Origin: Streptomyces lienomycini | Lineage (GTDB): Bacteria; Actinomycetota; Actinomycetes; Streptomycetales; Streptomycetaceae | Direction: 5' to 3' | Assembly: GCF_027947595.1 (NCBI RefSeq) | Contig: NZ_CP116257.1 | Location: 6,198,001-6,262,000 of the forward strand | DNA length: 64,000 nt | Part shown: positions 21,180 to 55,048 of the stretch, piece after piece | Layout: each line of letters opens with the position of its first letter | How positions within the stretch are numbered: position 1 is the first letter of the stretch | Made by a program: the position numbers and the translations under genes | The notes under the pieces: model-generated | What the model was told of the DNA's origin: nothing | What the model saw: only the letters and a program-made list of their open reading frames with translations | Databases searched by the model: none

Positions 21180-21836
21180 GTGCCCGAGGCGGACCGGCCG
21201 GTGCCAGAGGTGTTCGACCCGGCGCGGCGTGCCACCGCCCCGCCCCTCACCGAGCGCCAGCGCGAGCGTCGGCGCCGCATCCTGCACGCGACCGCCCAGT
21301 TGGCCTGCCGGGGCGGCTTCGAGGCGGTGCAGATGCGCGAGGTGGCGGAGTCCTCGCAGGTCGCGCTCGGCACCCTGTACCGCTACTTCCCGTCCAAGGT
21401 CCACCTGCTCGTCGCCACCATGCACGACCAGTTGGAGCGGCTGCACGGCACGCTGCGCAAGAGCCCGCCCACCGGCGAGACGGCCGCGGACCGGGTGGCG
21501 CAGACCCTGATGCGGGCCTTCGGCGCGCTGCAGCGCGAACCCCGGCTGGCCGAGGCGATGGCCCGCGCGCTGACCTTCGCCGACCGCAGCGTCTCCCCGG
21601 AGGTCGACCAGGTGTCCCGGCAGACCACGGCGATCATCCTGGACGCGATGGGCGGCCTGGAGAACCCGACCCCGGAGCAGCTCTCGGCGGTCCGTGTCAT
21701 CGAGCACACCTGGCTCTCCACGCTGATCACCTGGCTCGCGGGCCGCACCTCCCTCGCCCAGGTGCGGGTGGACATCGGGACGGTCTGCCGGCTGATCGAC
21801 CTGACGGAGGCCGGGGCGGGGGCGACGCCCCGCTGA
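21180..21836 (+). CDS. TetR-family regulator, KstR-like
   Basis: A 218-residue repressor. The N-terminal helix-turn-helix is RRRRILHATAQLACRGGFEAVQMREVAESSQVALGTLYRYFPSKVHLL (residues about 30-80), with the terminal YRYFPSK typical of TetR. The C-terminal domain contains MRAFGALQREPRLAEAMARA, reminiscent of KstR-type regulators of sterol or fatty acid catabolism. GTG 21180 is assumed; the start is not strongly marked. It faces the glycosyltransferase operon, and KstR-like sites lie between. The ligand is unknown and need not be a steroid. Confidence 0.85.
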   Translation: MPEADRPVPEVFDPARRATAPPLTERQRERRRRILHATAQLACRGGFEAVQMREVAESSQVALGTLYRYFPSKVHLLVATMHDQLERLHGTLRKSPPTGETAADRVAQTLMRAFGALQREPRLAEAMARALTFADRSVSPEVDQVSRQTTAIILDAMGGLENPTPEQLSAVRVIEHTWLSTLITWLAGRTSLAQVRVDIGTVCRLIDLTEAGAGATPR

Positions 21837-21897: not shown

Positions 21898-22073
21898 GCG
21901 GGTAAAGTGGCGGCGTCGTCATCACCCGTACGGGGGGAAGCCGGTGCAATTCCGGCGCTGACCCGCAACCGTGAGCCGCCCGCCGAGCCCGCTCGGGCCC
22001 CGGACGGTGAGCCGGACTGCCCCGCACGGATGTGACCGGCTCACGTGCCCGGCGCCCGCCGGCGCACGGGCAC
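21898..22073 (+). promoter_or_regulatory. Cobalamin (adenosylcobalamin-type) riboswitch with expression platform
   Basis: The conserved core is plain: GGGGAAGCCGGTGCAATTCC at 21935-21954 (the P3-P4 junction), GCTGACCCGCAACCGTGAGC at 21957-21976 (the B12 box) and GTGAGCCGGACTGCC at 22007-22021 (J11/10 region). A TAAAGT -10 candidate at 21903-21908 precedes it. Directly after the aptamer, CCGGCTCAC (22036-22044) is complementary to GTGAGCCGG (22007-22015), and a further hairpin spans 22045-22073. The leader ends 78 nt before the first gene's ATG. It should repress the downstream importer when cobalamin is abundant. Confidence 0.93.
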
Positions 22074-22151
22074 CGTCGAGGCATACGGGGCCGAGCCGCC
22101 GGGGGTGCCCCGTGCTGCCCGGTCCCGTTCAGGGAAAGGCACCCGCCGATC

Positions 22152-23402
22152 ATGAACGTCCGTCGTCGCGGCAGCGCCGCGGCCCTGGCAGCGATAGCCG
22201 TGATCGGCGCCGCCACCGCGCCCGCGGTCGCCGCCGACCCGTCGCCGTCCGCGCCCGCGTCCGCGCCGTCCGGGCTGTACGGGTCCACCGACCCGCAGTA
22301 CGACGGCGTCTGGCGCCAGTCCCTGGCGCTGCTCGCGCAGGACACGGCGGGCGTGGTCCCGTCGTCGAAGGCCGTGAAGTGGCTCACGGACCAGCAGTGC
22401 GCGAACGGTGCCTTCGCCCCCTTCCGCGCCGACCCGGCGGCGGCCTGCGACGCCAAGACCATGGTCGACAGCAACAGCACGGCCGCCGCCGTCCAGGCGC
22501 TGTGGGCCGTCGGCGGGCACGGCGACGTCGTCGAGGACGCCCTCGGCTGGCTGAAGTCCGTACAGAACGGGGACGGCGGCTGGGGCTACAGCCCGGGCAC
22601 CCCCAGCGACGCCAACTCCACCTCCGTCGTCATCGGCGCCCTGACCGCCACGGAGACCGACCCCGGGGAGGTCCGCAAGGACGGCAAGTCCCCCTACGAC
22701 GCCCTGCTGACCTTCGCCCTGCCCTGCGCGAAGGACAAGGGCGCGGGCGCCTTCGCCTTCCAGCCCGACAAGGACGGCAAGCTCCCGCCCAACGCGGACG
22801 CCACCGCCGCCGGGGTCCTCGGCGCCCTCGGCAAGGGCCTGGTGGCCGGGGCCGGCGAGAAGACCGGCGCCGCCTCCTGCGCCGACGCGGCGAAGCCGAC
22901 CCGCGAGCAGGCCGCCGCGAACGGCAGCGCGTACCTCGCCGCCGCCCTGGCCGGGGACGGCCACCTCAAGTCCGCCCTCGGCGGCTCCGCCGACCAGCCC
23001 GACTACGGCAACACCGCCGACGCCGTGGTCGCCCTCGCCGCACGGGGCGGCGCGGACAAGGCGGCCGAGCCGCTGGCGTGGCTGAAGAAGAACGCCGCGA
23101 AGTGGGCCGAGGAGAGCGGTCCGGCCGCGTACGCCCAGCTGATCTTCGCGGCCCACGCCACGGGCACCGACCCGCGCGACTTCGGCGGCACCGACCTGGT
23201 GGAGCGGCTGAACGCGACGGGCCCGGCCCCCCAGGGCGCGGCGGCGAGCGACACCGCGACCACGAGCGACCAGGCCGCGGGCGAGGAGGACGAGAAGGAC
23301 GGCTCCCCGTTCGGCGTCTGGTGGTTCGTCGGCGTCTGCCTGGTCTTCGGCATCGGCGTCGGTTTCCTGCTCAGCAACCGCAACAAGAAGCGGCAGCCGT
23401 GA
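22152..23402 (+). CDS. Membrane-tethered alpha/alpha-toroid surface protein of a B12 importer
   Basis: A 416-residue exported protein: signal peptide at residues 1-27 (RRRGSAAALAAIAVIGAATA, cleavage near AVAA-DP), repeated helical hairpins at residues 50-360 of the prenyltransferase/squalene-oxidase type (AVKWLTDQQCANGAF, ALGWLKSVQNGDGGWGY, DATAAGVLGALGKGL, PLAWLKKNAAKW), an acidic linker, and a C-terminal helix (WWFVGVCLVFGIGVGFLL) with a basic stop. So the toroid is displayed outside the membrane. No catalytic DxDD is seen. Being first behind the cobalamin riboswitch and coupled to an ECF transporter suggests a cobalamin-capturing role; the (alpha/alpha)6 barrel of animal intrinsic factor and transcobalamin is the structural analogy. 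ATG 22152 has GGGAAAGG upstream. Confidence 0.85.
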   Translation: MNVRRRGSAAALAAIAVIGAATAPAVAADPSPSAPASAPSGLYGSTDPQYDGVWRQSLALLAQDTAGVVPSSKAVKWLTDQQCANGAFAPFRADPAAACDAKTMVDSNSTAAAVQALWAVGGHGDVVEDALGWLKSVQNGDGGWGYSPGTPSDANSTSVVIGALTATETDPGEVRKDGKSPYDALLTFALPCAKDKGAGAFAFQPDKDGKLPPNADATAAGVLGALGKGLVAGAGEKTGAASCADAAKPTREQAAANGSAYLAAALAGDGHLKSALGGSADQPDYGNTADAVVALAARGGADKAAEPLAWLKKNAAKWAEESGPAAYAQLIFAAHATGTDPRDFGGTDLVERLNATGPAPQGAAASDTATTSDQAAGEEDEKDGSPFGVWWFVGVCLVFGIGVGFLLSNRNKKRQP

Positions 23403-24067
23403 CCCGCCGCGTCGTCCTCCTCTTCCTGGCCGCGTTCCTGCTGATCGGGACGGTCGGCCAGGCGCAGGCCGCCGGTTACCGCTACTGGTCCTTCTGGGAC
23501 CACGAGGGCGACCACTGGGTCTACGCCACCCAGGGGCCGTCCCTGGCCCGCCCCTCGGACGGGGACGTGCAGGGCTTCCGCTTCGCGGTGAGCGAGAACT
23601 CGGGCGACGCGGCCCAGCCGCGCGGCACGGCGGACTTCGACTCGATCTGCGCGAGGACCCCGGCCGAGGACGGCACCAAGCGGGTGGCCCTGGTCCTCGA
23701 CTTCGGTACGGCGTCCGACGCCCCGTCCGGCGAGACCCCGCCGTCCGCGCGCACGGCCTGCGCCCGGGTCTCCCCCGACGCCACGACCGCCGACGCCCTG
23801 GCCGCGGTGGCCGACCCGCTCCGCTACAACACCAGCGCCCTGCTGTGCGGCATCGCGGGCTACCCGAAGTCGGGGTGCGGGGAGCAGGTGTCGGAGCACC
23901 AGGAGAAGCAGGAGAAGCAGGGGCCCACGACCGCCCCGGCGCAGCAGGACGCCTCGGACGACGACGGCGGGCCCTCGGTCGGCCTGGTCGCGGGCGTCGC
24001 GGTGATCGCGGTCCTGGCCGCCGCGGGCGCCTGGCAGGCGAGGCGGCGCAGGAATGCGACCCGCTAG
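23399..24067 (+). CDS. SCO2322-family membrane-tethered surface protein
   Basis: A 222-residue protein with a signal peptide (VVLLFLAAFLLIGTVGQAQA) and a C-terminal helix (VGLVAGVAVIAVLAAAGAW) ending in RRRR. The mature N-terminus has an aromatic block GYRYWSFWDHEGDHWVYATQ followed by GPSLARPSDGDVQGFRFAVS, then a domain with four cysteines (SICAR, RTACARV, LLCGI, SGCGE) and a charged linker. The W-x-Y...DGDV-x-G-(F/W)-R-F pattern faintly recalls the small beta-domain (DUF4430) that forms the second half of intrinsic factor; this is my inference, not an established relation. The GTG start overlaps the toroid gene stop as GTGA. It accompanies the toroid gene, consistent with a two-part receptor. 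Confidence 0.8.
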   Translation: MTRRVVLLFLAAFLLIGTVGQAQAAGYRYWSFWDHEGDHWVYATQGPSLARPSDGDVQGFRFAVSENSGDAAQPRGTADFDSICARTPAEDGTKRVALVLDFGTASDAPSGETPPSARTACARVSPDATTADALAAVADPLRYNTSALLCGIAGYPKSGCGEQVSEHQEKQEKQGPTTAPAQQDASDDDGGPSVGLVAGVAVIAVLAAAGAWQARRRRNATR

Positions 24068-25235
24068 GACCGCGGGCGGTCGCGCCGCCGGGACGGCACC
24101 CGTCCCGCGGGGAGGCGGCGCCCCGTCGGCGCGGGGGCGGGTGGGCACGCCTCTGCACCCCGGTGCCTGGTGGCTCTGGGCGCTGGCCCTCGGCACCGCC
24201 GCCACCCGCACCACCAACCCGCTCCTCCTCGCCCTCCTCATAGCCGTCTCCGCGTACGTCGTGGTCAGCCGCCGCCCGCACGCCCCCTGGTCCCGCTCCT
24301 ACGGCGCCTTCGTCAAGCTCGCGCTCGCCGTCCTCGTCATCCGCCTCCTCTTCACCACGGTCCTGGGCTCCCCGATCCCCGGCACCCACACCCTCCTGAC
24401 CCTCCCCGAGGTCCCGCTCCCCGACTGGGCGCAGGGCATCCGCCTCGGCGGCCGGGTCACCGCGGAGGGCCTCGCCTTCGCGCTGTACGACGCGATGAAG
24501 CTGGCCACCCTCCTCATCTGCGTCGGCGCGGCGAACGCCCTGGCCAACCCCTCCCGCCTCCTCAAGTCCCTGCCCGGTGCCCTGTACGAGACGGGCGTGG
24601 CCGTGGTCGTCGCCCTCACCTTCGCGCCGAACCTCATCGCCGACGTCCAGCGTCTGCGCGCCGCCCGCCGCCTGCGCGGCCGCCCGGACAGGGGGGTGCG
24701 GGGCCTGCTCCAGGTGGGGCTCCCGGTCCTGGAGGGCGCCCTGGAACGCTCCGTCGCCCTCGCCGCCGCGATGGACGCCCGCGGCTACGGCCGTACCGCC
24801 CAGGTCCCCGCCCCCGTCCGCCGTACCACCGCCGCCCTCACCCTGGGCGGCCTGCTCGGCGTCTGCGCGGGGACGTACGGGCTGCTGACCGCCGCGGGCG
24901 GCACGTACGGCATCCCGGTGCTCCTGGCCGGTGTCGCCGCCGCGCTCGCGGGCCTGTGGCTCGGCGGCCGGCGCACGGTCCGCACCCGTTACCGCCCGGA
25001 CCGGTGGGACGCCCGCGCCTGGCTGGTCACCGCCTCCGGTGCGACGGTCGCCGCGCTGCTGTTCCTGGCCGCCGCCCGCGACCCGGCGGCGCTGCACCCG
25101 GGCGTGGTCCCGCTGGTGGCGCCGTCGCTCCCGCTGTGGCCGGCGGCCGCCGTACTCGTCGGCCTGCTCCCGGCGTTCATCACCCCCGCACCCGAGACCA
25201 CCACCGTGCAGACGTTCGTGAAGGAGCCGTCGTGA
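24054..25235 (+). CDS. ecfT: ECF transporter transmembrane coupling subunit EcfT
   Basis: A 393-residue T component with about eight predicted membrane helices. The two coupling-helix motifs that bind the ATPases are visible: RAARRLRGRP near residue 205 and AMDARGYGRT near residue 245. It starts 14 nt before the end of the preceding gene (ATG 24054 with GCGCAGGA upstream) and its own stop overlaps the next GTG as GTGA. The N-terminal 35 residues are hydrophilic and the extra helices after the second motif make it longer than a minimal EcfT. It links the S component to the ATPases in the membrane. Confidence 0.92.
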   Translation: MRPARTAGGRAAGTAPVPRGGGAPSARGRVGTPLHPGAWWLWALALGTAATRTTNPLLLALLIAVSAYVVVSRRPHAPWSRSYGAFVKLALAVLVIRLLFTTVLGSPIPGTHTLLTLPEVPLPDWAQGIRLGGRVTAEGLAFALYDAMKLATLLICVGAANALANPSRLLKSLPGALYETGVAVVVALTFAPNLIADVQRLRAARRLRGRPDRGVRGLLQVGLPVLEGALERSVALAAAMDARGYGRTAQVPAPVRRTTAALTLGGLLGVCAGTYGLLTAAGGTYGIPVLLAGVAAALAGLWLGGRRTVRTRYRPDRWDARAWLVTASGATVAALLFLAAARDPAALHPGVVPLVAPSLPLWPAAAVLVGLLPAFITPAPETTTVQTFVKEPS

Positions 25236-26923
25236 TCCGCTTCGAGGACGTGTCGGTCACCTACGACGGTGCGGCCGAACCCACCGTCCGGGCCGTGGAC
25301 TTCGAGGTCCCCGAGGGCGAACTCGTCCTGCTCGCCGGTCCGTCCGGGGTCGGCAAGTCCACCGTCCTGGGCGCGGTCGGCGGCCTCGTCCCGCACTTCA
25401 CCGGCGGCACGCTGAGCGGCCGGGTCACCGTGGCCGGCCGGGACACCCGCACCCACAAGCCGCGCGAACTCGCCGACGTCGTCGGCACGGTCGGCCAGGA
25501 CCCGCTCTCCCACTTCGTCACGGACGTCGTCGAGGACGAACTGGCCTACGGCATGGAGTCGCTGGGCCTGGCCCCCGACGTGATGCGCCGCCGCGTCGAG
25601 GAGACCCTCGACCTCCTGGGCCTGGCCGGTCTGCGCTCCCGCCCCATCGCCACCCTCTCCGGCGGCCAGCAGCAGCGGGTCGCCATCGGCTCGGTCCTCA
25701 CCCCGCACCCGGAGGTGCTGGTCCTGGACGAGCCGACCTCCGCCCTGGACCCCGCCGCCGCCGAGGAGGTCCTGGCCGTCCTCCAGCGCCTGGTCCACGA
25801 CCTCGGTACGACGGTCCTGATGGCCGAGCACCGCCTGGAGCGGGTCATCCAGTACGCCGACCGGGTCGTCCTGCTCCCCGCCCCCGGGGCGCCGCCGCTC
25901 CTCGGTACACCGGCGGACGTGATGGCCGTGTCGCCGGTGTTTCCGCCGGTGGTGGGCCTGGGCAGGCTGGCGGGCTGGTCCCCGCTGCCGCTGACGATCC
26001 GCGACGCCCGCCGTCGCGCCGCCCCGCTCCGGGAGCGCCTGGCCGACCGGGAGATCCCGGACCACACCCCGCCGGCCGCCCGGCTGCCCGCGCCCCCGGC
26101 CCTCCGGCCCGCCCCCTCCCGCCGTTGGCGACGCCGCGGGACGCCCGCACAAGCCCCGGCTGCCTCCGTCCCGTACGCCGCCGAGGTCCGCTCCCTCGCC
26201 GTGCGCCGCGACCGCGTCCAGGCACTGCGCCACGTCGACCTGACCGTCTCCCCCGGCGAGACGGTCGCCCTGATGGGCCGCAACGGCGCCGGGAAGTCCA
26301 CCCTCCTCTCCGCGCTGGTCGGCCTCGTCGAGCCGTCCGCCGGTTCCGTCCGGGCGGGCGACGCCGTACCGCACCGCACCGCCCCGCGCGACCTCGTACG
26401 CCGCGTCGGCCTGGTCCCGCAGGAGCCGCGCGACCTGCTGTACGCCGACACGGTCGCCGGGGAGTGCGCGGCGGCGGACCGGGACGCGGAGGCGTCGCCC
26501 GGCACCTGTCGCGCCCTGCTGTCGGAGCTGCTCCCCGGCGTGGCGGACGACACGCACCCCCGGGACCTGTCGGAGGGCCAGCGGCTGACGCTCGCCCTGT
26601 CCGTGGTCCTGACGGCCCGCCCCCCGCTGCTCCTCCTGGACGAGCCGACCCGCGGCCTGGACTACGCGGCGAAGGCCCGGCTGGCCGGCATCCTGCGCGG
26701 GCTGGCCGCCGAGGGCCACGCGATCGTGCTGGCCACGCACGACGTGGAACTGGCCGCCGAGCTGGCCCACCGGGTCGTCCTGCTCGCCGAGGGCGAGGTG
26801 ATCGCCGACGGCCCGGCGGCGGACGTGGTGGTGGCCTCGCCGTCGTATGCCCCGCAGGTGGCGAAGGTACTGGCGCCGAGGAAGTGGCTGACGGTCGCGC
26901 AGGTACGGGAGGCCCTGGCATGA
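25232..26923 (+). CDS. ECF transporter ATPase, tandem (EcfA-EcfA') fusion
   Basis: A 563-residue protein with two ABC ATPase halves. First half: Walker A GPSGVGKST at 36-44, signature LSGGQQQRV, Walker B VLVLDEPTSALDP, switch histidine in MAEHRLERV. Second half: Walker A GRNGAGKST near residue 350, signature LSEGQRLTL (degenerate: E for the second G), Walker B LLLLDEPTRGLDY and LATHDVE. A proline/alanine-rich linker of about 60 residues joins them. Two unequal halves suggest a built-in heterodimer. The GTG start and the ATGA at its end couple it to both neighbours. Confidence 0.93.
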   Translation: MIRFEDVSVTYDGAAEPTVRAVDFEVPEGELVLLAGPSGVGKSTVLGAVGGLVPHFTGGTLSGRVTVAGRDTRTHKPRELADVVGTVGQDPLSHFVTDVVEDELAYGMESLGLAPDVMRRRVEETLDLLGLAGLRSRPIATLSGGQQQRVAIGSVLTPHPEVLVLDEPTSALDPAAAEEVLAVLQRLVHDLGTTVLMAEHRLERVIQYADRVVLLPAPGAPPLLGTPADVMAVSPVFPPVVGLGRLAGWSPLPLTIRDARRRAAPLRERLADREIPDHTPPAARLPAPPALRPAPSRRWRRRGTPAQAPAASVPYAAEVRSLAVRRDRVQALRHVDLTVSPGETVALMGRNGAGKSTLLSALVGLVEPSAGSVRAGDAVPHRTAPRDLVRRVGLVPQEPRDLLYADTVAGECAAADRDAEASPGTCRALLSELLPGVADDTHPRDLSEGQRLTLALSVVLTARPPLLLLDEPTRGLDYAAKARLAGILRGLAAEGHAIVLATHDVELAAELAHRVVLLAEGEVIADGPAADVVVASPSYAPQVAKVLAPRKWLTVAQVREALA

Positions 26924-27771
26924 CCGGCGGCACCCCTGCCCAGCGCCAGGCCCGCGCCGTGCGCCTGGGCCCGCGCTCGGTCGCCGCCCTGGTGCTGGTC
27001 AGCGCCGTGGGCGTGGCGGGCTTCGGCTGGCCGTTCCTGGCCCCGCCGGACGCCTCGCTGAACGCGCACGCGCAGGACGCGCCGTGGCTGTTCGCGGGCG
27101 TGCTGGTGCTGATGGTGGCCGTGGTGGCGGCGACGATCTCGGAGTCGGGTCTCGGCCCCAAGGCGGTCGCGATGCTCGGCGTCCTGGCGGCGGCGGGCGC
27201 GGCCCTGCGGCCCATCGGCGCGGGGACGGCCGGCCTGGAACCGATGTTCTTCCTGATGGTCCTCAGCGGCCGGGTCCTCGGCCCCGGCTTCGGCTTCGTC
27301 CTCGGCTCGGTCACGATGTTCGCGTCCGCGCTGCTCACGGGCGGTGTCGGCCCGTGGATGCCGTTCCAGATGCTGGCGATGGGCTGGTTCACGATGGGCG
27401 CGGGCCTGCTGCCGGGCCCCGACCGCCTGCGCGGCCGCGCGGAGCTGGCGATGCTGGCCGCGTACGGCTTCCTGGCGGCCTTCGCCTACGGCACGGTGAT
27501 GAACCTCGCGGGCTGGACCTTCATGAACACGCTCGCCTCGAACATCGCCTTCGACCCGGACGCGTCGATCCCCACCAACCTGGCCCGCTTCCTCTCCTAC
27601 TGCCTGGCCACGTCGCTGGGCTGGGACGGAGGCCGCGCCGCGATGACGGTCGTGCTGACCCTCGCCCTCGGCACCCCGGTCCTGAAGGCGCTGCGCCGCG
27701 CCACCCGCAGGGCTGCCTTCGAGACGCCGGTCACGTTCGAGAAGGCCGACGAGGTGAGCCGCCCCACGTGA
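26920..27771 (+). CDS. ECF transporter substrate-binding S component, probably cobalamin
   Basis: A 283-residue membrane protein with six or more helices: residues about 17-37, 50-70, 78-95, 110-140, 145-165 and 180-200. Small-residue-rich helices and the segment AMLGVLAAAGAALRPIG fit ECF S components of the cobalamin/CbrT-like group. A cobalamin specificity rests on the riboswitch and the operon, not on residues I can point to. It overlaps the ATPase by ATGA and is the last gene; a hairpin follows at once. Confidence 0.85.
   Translation: MTGGTPAQRQARAVRLGPRSVAALVLVSAVGVAGFGWPFLAPPDASLNAHAQDAPWLFAGVLVLMVAVVAATISESGLGPKAVAMLGVLAAAGAALRPIGAGTAGLEPMFFLMVLSGRVLGPGFGFVLGSVTMFASALLTGGVGPWMPFQMLAMGWFTMGAGLLPGPDRLRGRAELAMLAAYGFLAAFAYGTVMNLAGWTFMNTLASNIAFDPDASIPTNLARFLSYCLATSLGWDGGRAAMTVVLTLALGTPVLKALRRATRRAAFETPVTFEKADEVSRPT

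Positions 27772-54973: not shown

Positions 54974-55048
<75 letters not shown>

What the first reader, a model, noticed from the sequence alone, without database searches (positions are those of the whole stretch)
21898..27771. Riboswitch-controlled B12 importer with a possible two-part, intrinsic-factor-like surface receptor
Seen: a cobalamin riboswitch, then five genes joined by GTGA, 14-nt, GTGA and ATGA overlaps. The first two products are exported and each tethered by a C-terminal helix: an alpha/alpha-toroid and a small Trp/Tyr- and DGDV-rich protein. The other three are EcfT, a double EcfA and an S component. Known: animal intrinsic factor and transcobalamin combine an (alpha/alpha)6 barrel with a small beta domain (DUF4430), and cobalamin lies between them; ECF importers normally need no extracytoplasmic binding protein. 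Inference: here the two halves may be separate membrane-bound proteins that clamp cobalamin and hand it to the S component, a bacterial counterpart of the animal carriers.
Basis: partly seen in the sequence, partly recalled or inferred. Interest (0 to 1): 0.78.

Follow-up and report, generated by a model that had tools for sequence, protein, structure and literature searches.

The report
Permuted two-part vitamin B12 receptor operon
A Streptomyces operon that looks like a vitamin-B12 importer carries two surface proteins related to the two halves of the animal B12 carriers, and in this bacterial lineage the chains of both have had their front and back parts swapped.

Summary
The operon is real: a cobalamin riboswitch (below Rfam's cut-off alone, supported by comparison), exported toroid (SCO2321 family), exported small protein (SCO2322 family), EcfT, fused EcfA-EcfA, S component. 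Relatives of the small protein are homologous to the transcobalamin/intrinsic-factor beta domain (DUF4430; profile-profile P = 9.5e-6). The window's version is circularly permuted: strands 3-5 precede strand 1-strand 2-helix-hairpin; its model (pLDDT 95) shows those elements. Unexpectedly the toroid is permuted too: 55 of 55 scored toroids in permuted-beta loci, 0 of 50 in unpermuted-beta loci. Riboswitch matches lie upstream of 35 of 40 permuted and 17 of 21 unpermuted beta genes. A natural toroid-beta fusion (Nocardioidaceae) was modelled; its first 13 PDB rows are transcobalamin/intrinsic factor, but the domain orientation is not reproduced, and rigid superposition of the toroid favours squalene cyclases. 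Toroid plus transcobalamin-like domains beside CbiO/CbiQ were described in other bacteria in 2007, so the concept is not new; the Streptomyces assignment and joint permutation appear to be. Against an obligate clamp: 27 of 67 loci lack a toroid, and 21 of 26 such genomes searched show none. Cobalamin binding is untested.

The parts
21935..21990 (+). cobalamin riboswitch core (Rfam RF00174 match, sub-threshold alone)
   Evidence: comparative position
22152..23402 (+). exported alpha/alpha toroid, SCO2321 family, with a C-terminal hydrophobic stretch and basic tail (by eye)
22269..22874 (+). toroid 'core' repeats (residues 40-241), which come second in unpermuted relatives
22923..23222 (+). toroid 'cap' repeats (residues 258-357), which come first in unpermuted relatives
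23399..24067 (+). exported small protein, SCO2322 family, GPS-CTERM anchor: circularly permuted transcobalamin-like beta domain
23474..23590 (+). N-half of the beta domain (strands 3-5 of the canonical order)
23678..23878 (+). C-half of the beta domain (strand 1, strand 2, helix, hairpin of the canonical order)
23969..24052 (+). GPS-CTERM anchor of the small protein
24054..25235 (+). EcfT (CbiQ family)
25232..26923 (+). fused EcfA-EcfA' ATPase (two ABC_tran stretches)
26920..27771 (+). S component (ECF_trnsprt, PF12822)

Best explanation
A riboswitch-controlled importer for cobalamin or a close corrinoid. An ECF transporter (EcfT, fused EcfA-EcfA', dedicated S component) is served by two proteins exported and tethered by C-terminal helices: an alpha/alpha toroid and a small beta-grasp domain of the transcobalamin type (SLBB superfamily). 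By analogy with transcobalamin, toroid and beta domain hold the corrinoid between them (inferred) and pass it to the S component (inferred). Shown by computation: operon, riboswitch context, homology of the beta domain through unpermuted relatives, natural toroid-beta and S-toroid fusions, and circular permutation of both partners in the lineage that includes Streptomyces.
For: Order toroid-beta-EcfT-EcfAA-S or DUF4430-EcfT-EcfAA-S-toroid recurs across the fetched loci. RF00174 match (E <= 0.001) upstream on the same strand: within 8 kb of 23 of 28 SCO2322-like matches and 19 of 23 DUF4430 matches examined; within 5 kb of 35 of 40 permuted and 17 of 21 unpermuted beta genes. In the 5 of 26 toroid-less loci whose genome has a toroid match on another stretch, it starts about 200-600 bp downstream of a riboswitch match of its own. 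Unpermuted beta vs DUF4430: P = 9.5e-6 over 91 columns, score 33.8; 60 column shuffles reached at most 20.0, reversed 7.2 (a smaller first comparison gave P = 3.7e-5). Beta order: 41 permuted and 30 unpermuted of 71 ORFs with both halves; 39 and 40 of 79. Rotating the window family raises its score against unpermuted relatives from 99.4 (40 columns) to 169.3 (102-104 columns) at the five sampled cuts in the inter-half linker. Toroid likewise 300.4 (190 columns) to 444.8 (297); toroid order agrees with the beta type in 105 of 105 scored ORFs of loci with a typed beta gene. Window beta model: pLDDT 95.3, pTM 0.90, elements as expected for a permuted SLBB. Toroid-beta fusion model: first 13 PDB rows are transcobalamin/intrinsic factor, E 3.0e-9 to 2.5e-7, 466-490 alignment columns with gaps. 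Fusions.
Confidence: 0.72

Rival explanations
1. The small beta protein alone is the extracytoplasmic corrinoid receptor or S-component partner; the toroid is an optional accessory with another task (tethering, surface scaffold, presentation).
For: 27 of 67 loci with a typed beta gene (19 of 41 permuted, 8 of 26 unpermuted) have no toroid in the fetched stretch (a few of these stretches begin near a contig end), and 21 of 26 such genomes searched have no SCO2321_fam match.
Against: Where the toroid lies on another stretch it has its own cobalamin riboswitch match, 5 of 5 (G211 may be one locus split by assembly); toroid-beta and S-toroid fusions exist; toroid and beta have the permuted order in the same loci.
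Confidence: 0.25
2. The toroid is an active squalene-cyclase-like terpenoid or sugar enzyme that merely shares the operon.
For: Nearest PDB sequence and rigid-structure matches are squalene-hopene cyclases.
Against: No D-x-D-D string anywhere in the window toroid (that this motif is the catalytic one is recalled); curated cyclase cut-offs are missed by far (TIGR01507 17.8 of 431.1 bits); it looks exported and shares the riboswitch-associated operon.
Confidence: 0.05
3. The ECF system carries something other than complete cobalamin: cobinamide or other corrinoid precursors, or cobalt.
For: The genome already has a riboswitch-linked CbiM cobalt system and another riboswitch-linked ABC system.
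Against: The S component matches ECF_trnsprt and no CbiM model; a transcobalamin-type beta domain suits a corrinoid rather than cobalt ions (inference). Cobinamide cannot be excluded.
Confidence: 0.25
4. The 'permutation' is an artefact of repeat similarity or misalignment.
For: Toroid repeats resemble each other, so a cap profile could match another repeat; some second, weaker cap hits do occur. Some half-domain hits in unpermuted beta proteins are modest (C-half E from 2e-19 to 4e-4).
Against: Half profiles built separately from permuted sequences hit unpermuted ones in reversed order; rotation scans peak at the linker for both domains; NF040672 itself matches relatives as two reversed halves (G129; G207, G223, G235).
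Confidence: 0.03

Closest known systems
Bacterial transcobalamin-C-like SLBB/DUF4430 proteins with alpha/alpha toroids beside CbiO/CbiQ (Burroughs et al. 2007, PMC1796856; parts 1-2 of 6 of its main section and term passages read)
   Same: Toroid plus transcobalamin-like beta-grasp domain, surface-located, in predicted CbiO/CbiQ (ECF) operons, proposed for B12 scavenging.
   Different: The text read places the clade in low-GC Gram-positives, planctomycetes and less often euryarchaea; the words Streptomyces, permut- and riboswitch have 0 occurrences in its main text, though the legend's species list for the whole superfamily names two actinobacteria. Here both domains are circularly permuted and sit on separate anchored chains.
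Animal transcobalamin / intrinsic factor / haptocorrin
   Same: Toroid plus SLBB beta domain; the unpermuted bacterial toroid-beta fusion has them as its first 13 Foldseek rows.
   Different: Separate membrane-tethered chains, both permuted; the eukaryotic cobalamin-binding Pfam model (PF01122, accession recalled) is not in the lists; orientation and ligand binding not shown.
ECF-CbrT and BtuM cobalamin transporters (PMC5997447, PMC6072759: start of abstracts in search listings only)
   Same: ECF-type, or predicted, bacterial cobalamin uptake.
   Different: What I saw of them mentions no extracytoplasmic receptor pair; I did not read the papers.
NCBIfam SCO2321_fam (NF053823) and SCO2322_fam (NF040672)
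   Same: The window proteins are plain members (614.6 and 235.8 bits).
   Different: These families carry no functional name; this report proposes one.

Membership tests
Transcobalamin-type SLBB (DUF4430, PF14478) | Match to the Pfam model | tested here: not met
   No Pfam family for the window protein at E <= 10; no PF14478 match at E <= 0.001 in its genome. The unpermuted relatives mostly miss it too: 21 of 23 genomes with weak SCO2322-like matches had no PF14478 match.
Transcobalamin-type SLBB (DUF4430, PF14478) | Profile homology | tested here: met
   Unpermuted relatives vs DUF4430 P = 9.5e-6, 91 columns; window family rotated 77 columns, P = 3.5e-6 (native order 44 columns, 9.1e-6). A first comparison with only near Streptomyces sequences was weak (0.0042 rotated, 0.0097 native).
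Transcobalamin-type SLBB (DUF4430, PF14478) | Elements strand 1-strand 2-helix-hairpin-strands 3-5 | tested here: met
   The elements are present in the window model, in permuted order; in canonical order in the L214 fusion model, where strand 4 is not listed by DSSP. Canonical list: PMC1949818 table passage.
Transcobalamin-type SLBB (DUF4430, PF14478) | Canonical chain order | tested here: not met
   permuted.
[quoted passage not shown]
   Tyr155 of the G-Y-P motif is a candidate, nearly invariant among permuted sequences; no ligand model.
Transcobalamin/intrinsic factor (two-domain carrier) | Toroid and beta domain working together | tested here: inconclusive
   Fusions and co-occurrence, joint permutation; but many toroid-less loci, and orientation not reproduced.
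Transcobalamin/intrinsic factor (two-domain carrier) | Rigid superposition on transcobalamin/IF | tested here: inconclusive
   Not among the 50 rows shown by VIA-align for the fusion model, where cyclase and epimerase toroids fill the list.
Transcobalamin/intrinsic factor (two-domain carrier) | Cobalamin binding | not testable with these tools
   Needs protein.
ECF transporter | EcfT, two ATPases, S component | tested here: met
   CbiQ 33.6 (25), two ABC_tran stretches, ECF_trnsprt 30.9 (30.7).
Cobalamin riboswitch RF00174 | Gathering score | tested here: not met
   27.6 of 31.5 bits; positional conservation supports it.
Squalene-hopene cyclase | Curated family score | tested here: not met
   TIGR01507 17.8 of 431.1 bits; no D-x-D-D string in the window toroid (motif recalled).

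The most novel reading that the evidence does not exclude
Two physically separate proteins that together form one B12-binding clamp were both circularly permuted in one lineage while their partnership, and presumably their interface, was kept: a natural case of concerted permutation of interacting partners, perhaps by tandem duplication and trimming of an ancestral toroid-beta gene pair or fusion, re-siting both membrane anchors relative to the ligand face so that the pair can dock on the S component.
Probability: 0.35. Interest if true: 0.88.

Novelty: new variant of a known kind. Interest (0 to 1): 0.7.

Why it matters
It gives a testable function to two conserved unnamed Streptomyces families: SCO2322-like matches were found in 30 of the 31 genomes listed as same genus and 123 of 296 genomes drawn from the class. 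It extends the proposed bacterial counterpart of the animal B12 carriers to a further large group of actinobacteria. The joint permutation of two partner proteins would be a natural experiment on how protein interfaces survive topological rearrangement.

Tried and rejected

My first DUF4430 seed translated minus-strand loci on the wrong strand; it was rebuilt. One search uses one search's positions and searches use the rebuilt set. The profile was still used to mark DUF4430 positions in the maps (it also gave some opposite-strand marks); no count rests on those marks. The beta profile iterated mixed both chain orders and is not used; orders come from separate half profiles. 14 ORFs showed only the N-half and were not typed there; in the trees 9 loci among them were set as unpermuted by eye.

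One search examined 28 of 33 distinct SCO2322-like matches and 23 DUF4430 matches, one in each of 23 of the 37 genomes; the rest were not searched for riboswitches. One search covered 26 of the 27 toroid-less loci's genomes (the genome of L186 was left out), plus three genomes with a toroid as controls, all three found. One search used 30 permuted and 30 unpermuted toroids drawn at random and 8 of the DUF4430-type ones. In one search, 8 of 136 toroid ORFs lacked one of the two segments and were not scored; 23 further ORFs had no typed beta gene (22 cap-core, 1 core-cap, L082, weak); some ORFs are second toroid genes of a locus, on either strand. Counts are of ORFs, not independent events: several genomes or near-copies occur twice (for example L163/L212, L162/L194, L176/L254, L179/L246). 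Of the 5 permuted beta genes without an upstream riboswitch match, 2 lie within 500 bases of a contig start.

Alignments A6, A8, A10, A11 and A12 for the fusion misplaced toroid ends or tails onto the beta columns; A13 was used, with linker tails of several toroid rows still in beta columns. EcfT trees: 6 changes of chain order in the first (135 rows), 3 in the second (80 rows after dropping 4 rows and near-copies); starred branches force at least 2 and 1, so a single origin of the permutation is not shown.

Literature, by seven searches of the held open library: no paper on SCO2321/SCO2322 in B12 uptake (one search listed one paper, on another subject) and none on a permuted transcobalamin-type domain among the listed ones. 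A different permutation, in the UFD domain of E1 enzymes, is in PMC1949818 (passages). PMC4350170 and PMC13385337 were seen as passages; PMC11109136, PMC3766115 and PMC2667541 were only searched for terms.
Full report
WHAT IS THERE. The window lies in a Streptomyces-like genome of 7.86 Mb (the nearest rows in the EcfT tree are Streptomyces). Family scans: toroid = SCO2321_fam 614.6 bits; small protein = SCO2322_fam 235.8 bits plus a GPS-CTERM anchor and no family in the held Pfam (the protein database's own precomputed table gives it a newer Pfam accession, PF28005); EcfT = CbiQ; double EcfA; S component = ECF_trnsprt. The riboswitch match is RF00174 at 21935-21990, 27.6 bits, under the gathering score of 31.5. 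The genome has six RF00174 places at E <= 0.001; four of the others precede a CbiM cobalt system, a substrate-binding protein of an ABC system (best models EitA and F420-0, both below their cut-offs; a BtuC-like permease follows by my reading), a CbiB/CobD gene, and ribonucleotide reductase alpha. The genome therefore seems able to make corrinoids too.

COMPARATIVE CONTEXT. SCO2322-like matches occur in 31 of 197 genomes drawn from the phylum (9 over cut-off) and 123 of 296 drawn from the class (102 over cut-off). DUF4430 occurs in 37 of the 197. Mapping profiles of the window proteins on the fetched stretches shows two recurrent orders: toroid > beta > EcfT > EcfAA > S, and DUF4430 > EcfT > EcfAA > S > toroid. 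An RF00174 match (E <= 0.001, many below gathering score) lies upstream on the same strand of 23 of 28 SCO2322-like and 19 of 23 DUF4430 matches examined (within 8 kb), and of 35 of 40 permuted and 17 of 21 unpermuted beta genes in the class set (within 5 kb). Of 67 loci with a typed beta gene, 27 have no toroid in the fetched stretch (19 of 41 permuted, 8 of 26 unpermuted). In 5 of 26 such genomes searched a toroid sits on another stretch (G129, G099, G336, G202, G211), about 200-600 bp downstream of its own riboswitch match; G211 may be one locus split by assembly. In the other 21 no SCO2321_fam match was found. The toroid thus seems dispensable in many lineages.

THE BETA DOMAIN IS A CIRCULAR PERMUTANT. 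Already the curated NF040672 model, which follows the Streptomyces order, hits relatives as two halves in reversed order (G129; G207, G223, G235). Separate half profiles, iterated independently from Streptomyces seeds, give 41 ORFs with the N-half first and 30 with the C-half first among the 71 with both halves; 14 more show only the N-half. In the 80 loci of named genomes the figures are 39 and 40 of 79 ORFs: permuted in Streptomyces (one exception, L246), Kitasatospora and Nanopelagicales, unpermuted in Amycolatopsis, Lentzea, Umezawaea, Actinomadura, Thermomonospora, Knoellia, Janibacter, Stackebrandtia and others. The unpermuted family aligns with DUF4430 over 91 columns (P = 9.5e-6, score 33.8; 60 column shuffles at most 20.0; reversed 7.2), after a smaller comparison with P = 3.7e-5. 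Rotating the permuted family lifts its score against the unpermuted one from 99.4 (40 columns) to 169.3 (102-104 columns) at the five sampled cuts inside the linker. Against DUF4430 the gain is mainly in coverage, 44 to 77 columns, with the score going from 35.4 to 37.5 over a broad range of cuts; with near Streptomyces sequences only it was weak. AlphaFold2 on the window domain (69-row alignment) gives pLDDT 95.3, pTM 0.90, and strands/helix in the order 3-4-5 then 1-2-helix-hairpin. That element list, with the extra hairpin before strand 3, is the published signature of the transcobalamin-type SLBB clade (PMC1796856; PMC1949818 passages). Order-dependent structure searches with this model find nothing, as expected of a permuted chain but inconclusive in itself. 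The unpermuted relatives also escape the DUF4430 model in most genomes, so divergence, not permutation alone, hid the family.

THE TOROID IS PERMUTED AS WELL. In permuted-beta loci the toroid runs core then cap; in unpermuted-beta and DUF4430 loci cap then core. Scored separately: 55 of 55 toroid ORFs in permuted-beta loci are core-cap, 50 of 50 in unpermuted-beta loci are cap-core, and 22 of 23 without a typed beta gene are cap-core; 8 of 136 lacked one segment. A rotation scan on 30 permuted and 30 unpermuted toroids drawn at random agrees: 300.4 (190 columns) natively, 444.8 (297 columns) when cut at the core-cap linker; against 8 DUF4430-type toroids 147.7 (160 columns) to 213.9 (270). These ORFs are not independent. 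EcfT trees cluster the permuted state within the unpermuted one but need 3-6 changes and do not establish a single origin. Unpermuted is the likely ancestral order, because DUF4430 loci share it (inference).

MECHANISM. Computed: operon, riboswitch context, anchor domain, homology and permutation; export signals are read by eye. Inferred: the pair holds a corrinoid between toroid and beta domain as in transcobalamin and passes it to the S component; low adenosylcobalamin relieves the riboswitch. Beta-only loci suggest that the beta domain is the more constant partner, perhaps able to work with the S component alone.

WHAT IS KNOWN AND WHAT IS NEW. Burroughs et al. 2007 already joined transcobalamin-C-like domains, toroids and CbiO/CbiQ operons in low-GC Gram-positives and others, proposed B12 scavenging, and proposed bacterial ancestry of the animal carriers (abstract, sections). 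New here, as far as seven searches of the held library show: the Streptomyces SCO2321/SCO2322 assignment, the circular permutation of the beta domain, and its coupling to permutation of the toroid.

Noticed in passing
L101:3920-6151 (-) and L103:3922-5895 (-): Single reading frames that join an ECF S component to a toroid, a physical link between transporter and receptor.
   Followed up: partly
L072, and G162/G322/G392/G441: Some genomes of the window's genus carry two SCO2322-like matches at separate places, one strong and one weak; in G162 the weak one is unpermuted (L072) and a DUF4430 match lies about 6 kb further on.
   Followed up: partly
L096:3836-8443 (+): 1536-aa protein with DUF4430 stretches, Ig-like domains and a propeller-like match, beside another DUF4430-EcfT-S group.
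   Followed up: no
L005 (own genome, C1:2495561-2495704): Sub-threshold cobalamin riboswitch match (29.4 bits) with no clear downstream gene; a MarR-like gene by eye.
   Followed up: no
L002 (own genome, C1:3447642): Strong cobalamin riboswitch ahead of an ABC substrate-binding protein whose best named models are siderophore EitA and F420-0 (both below cut-off); possibly the corrinoid ABC system.
   Followed up: partly
L130, L131, L133-L139, L142, L143, L149, L152, L159, L164: Permuted-beta loci with no toroid gene in the fetched stretch: apparent beta-only variants.
   Followed up: yes
window 21180-21836 (+): TetR-like regulator gene directly upstream of the riboswitch leader (by eye).
   Followed up: no
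window 54977-55048 (-): tRNA gene, 69 bits.
   Followed up: no
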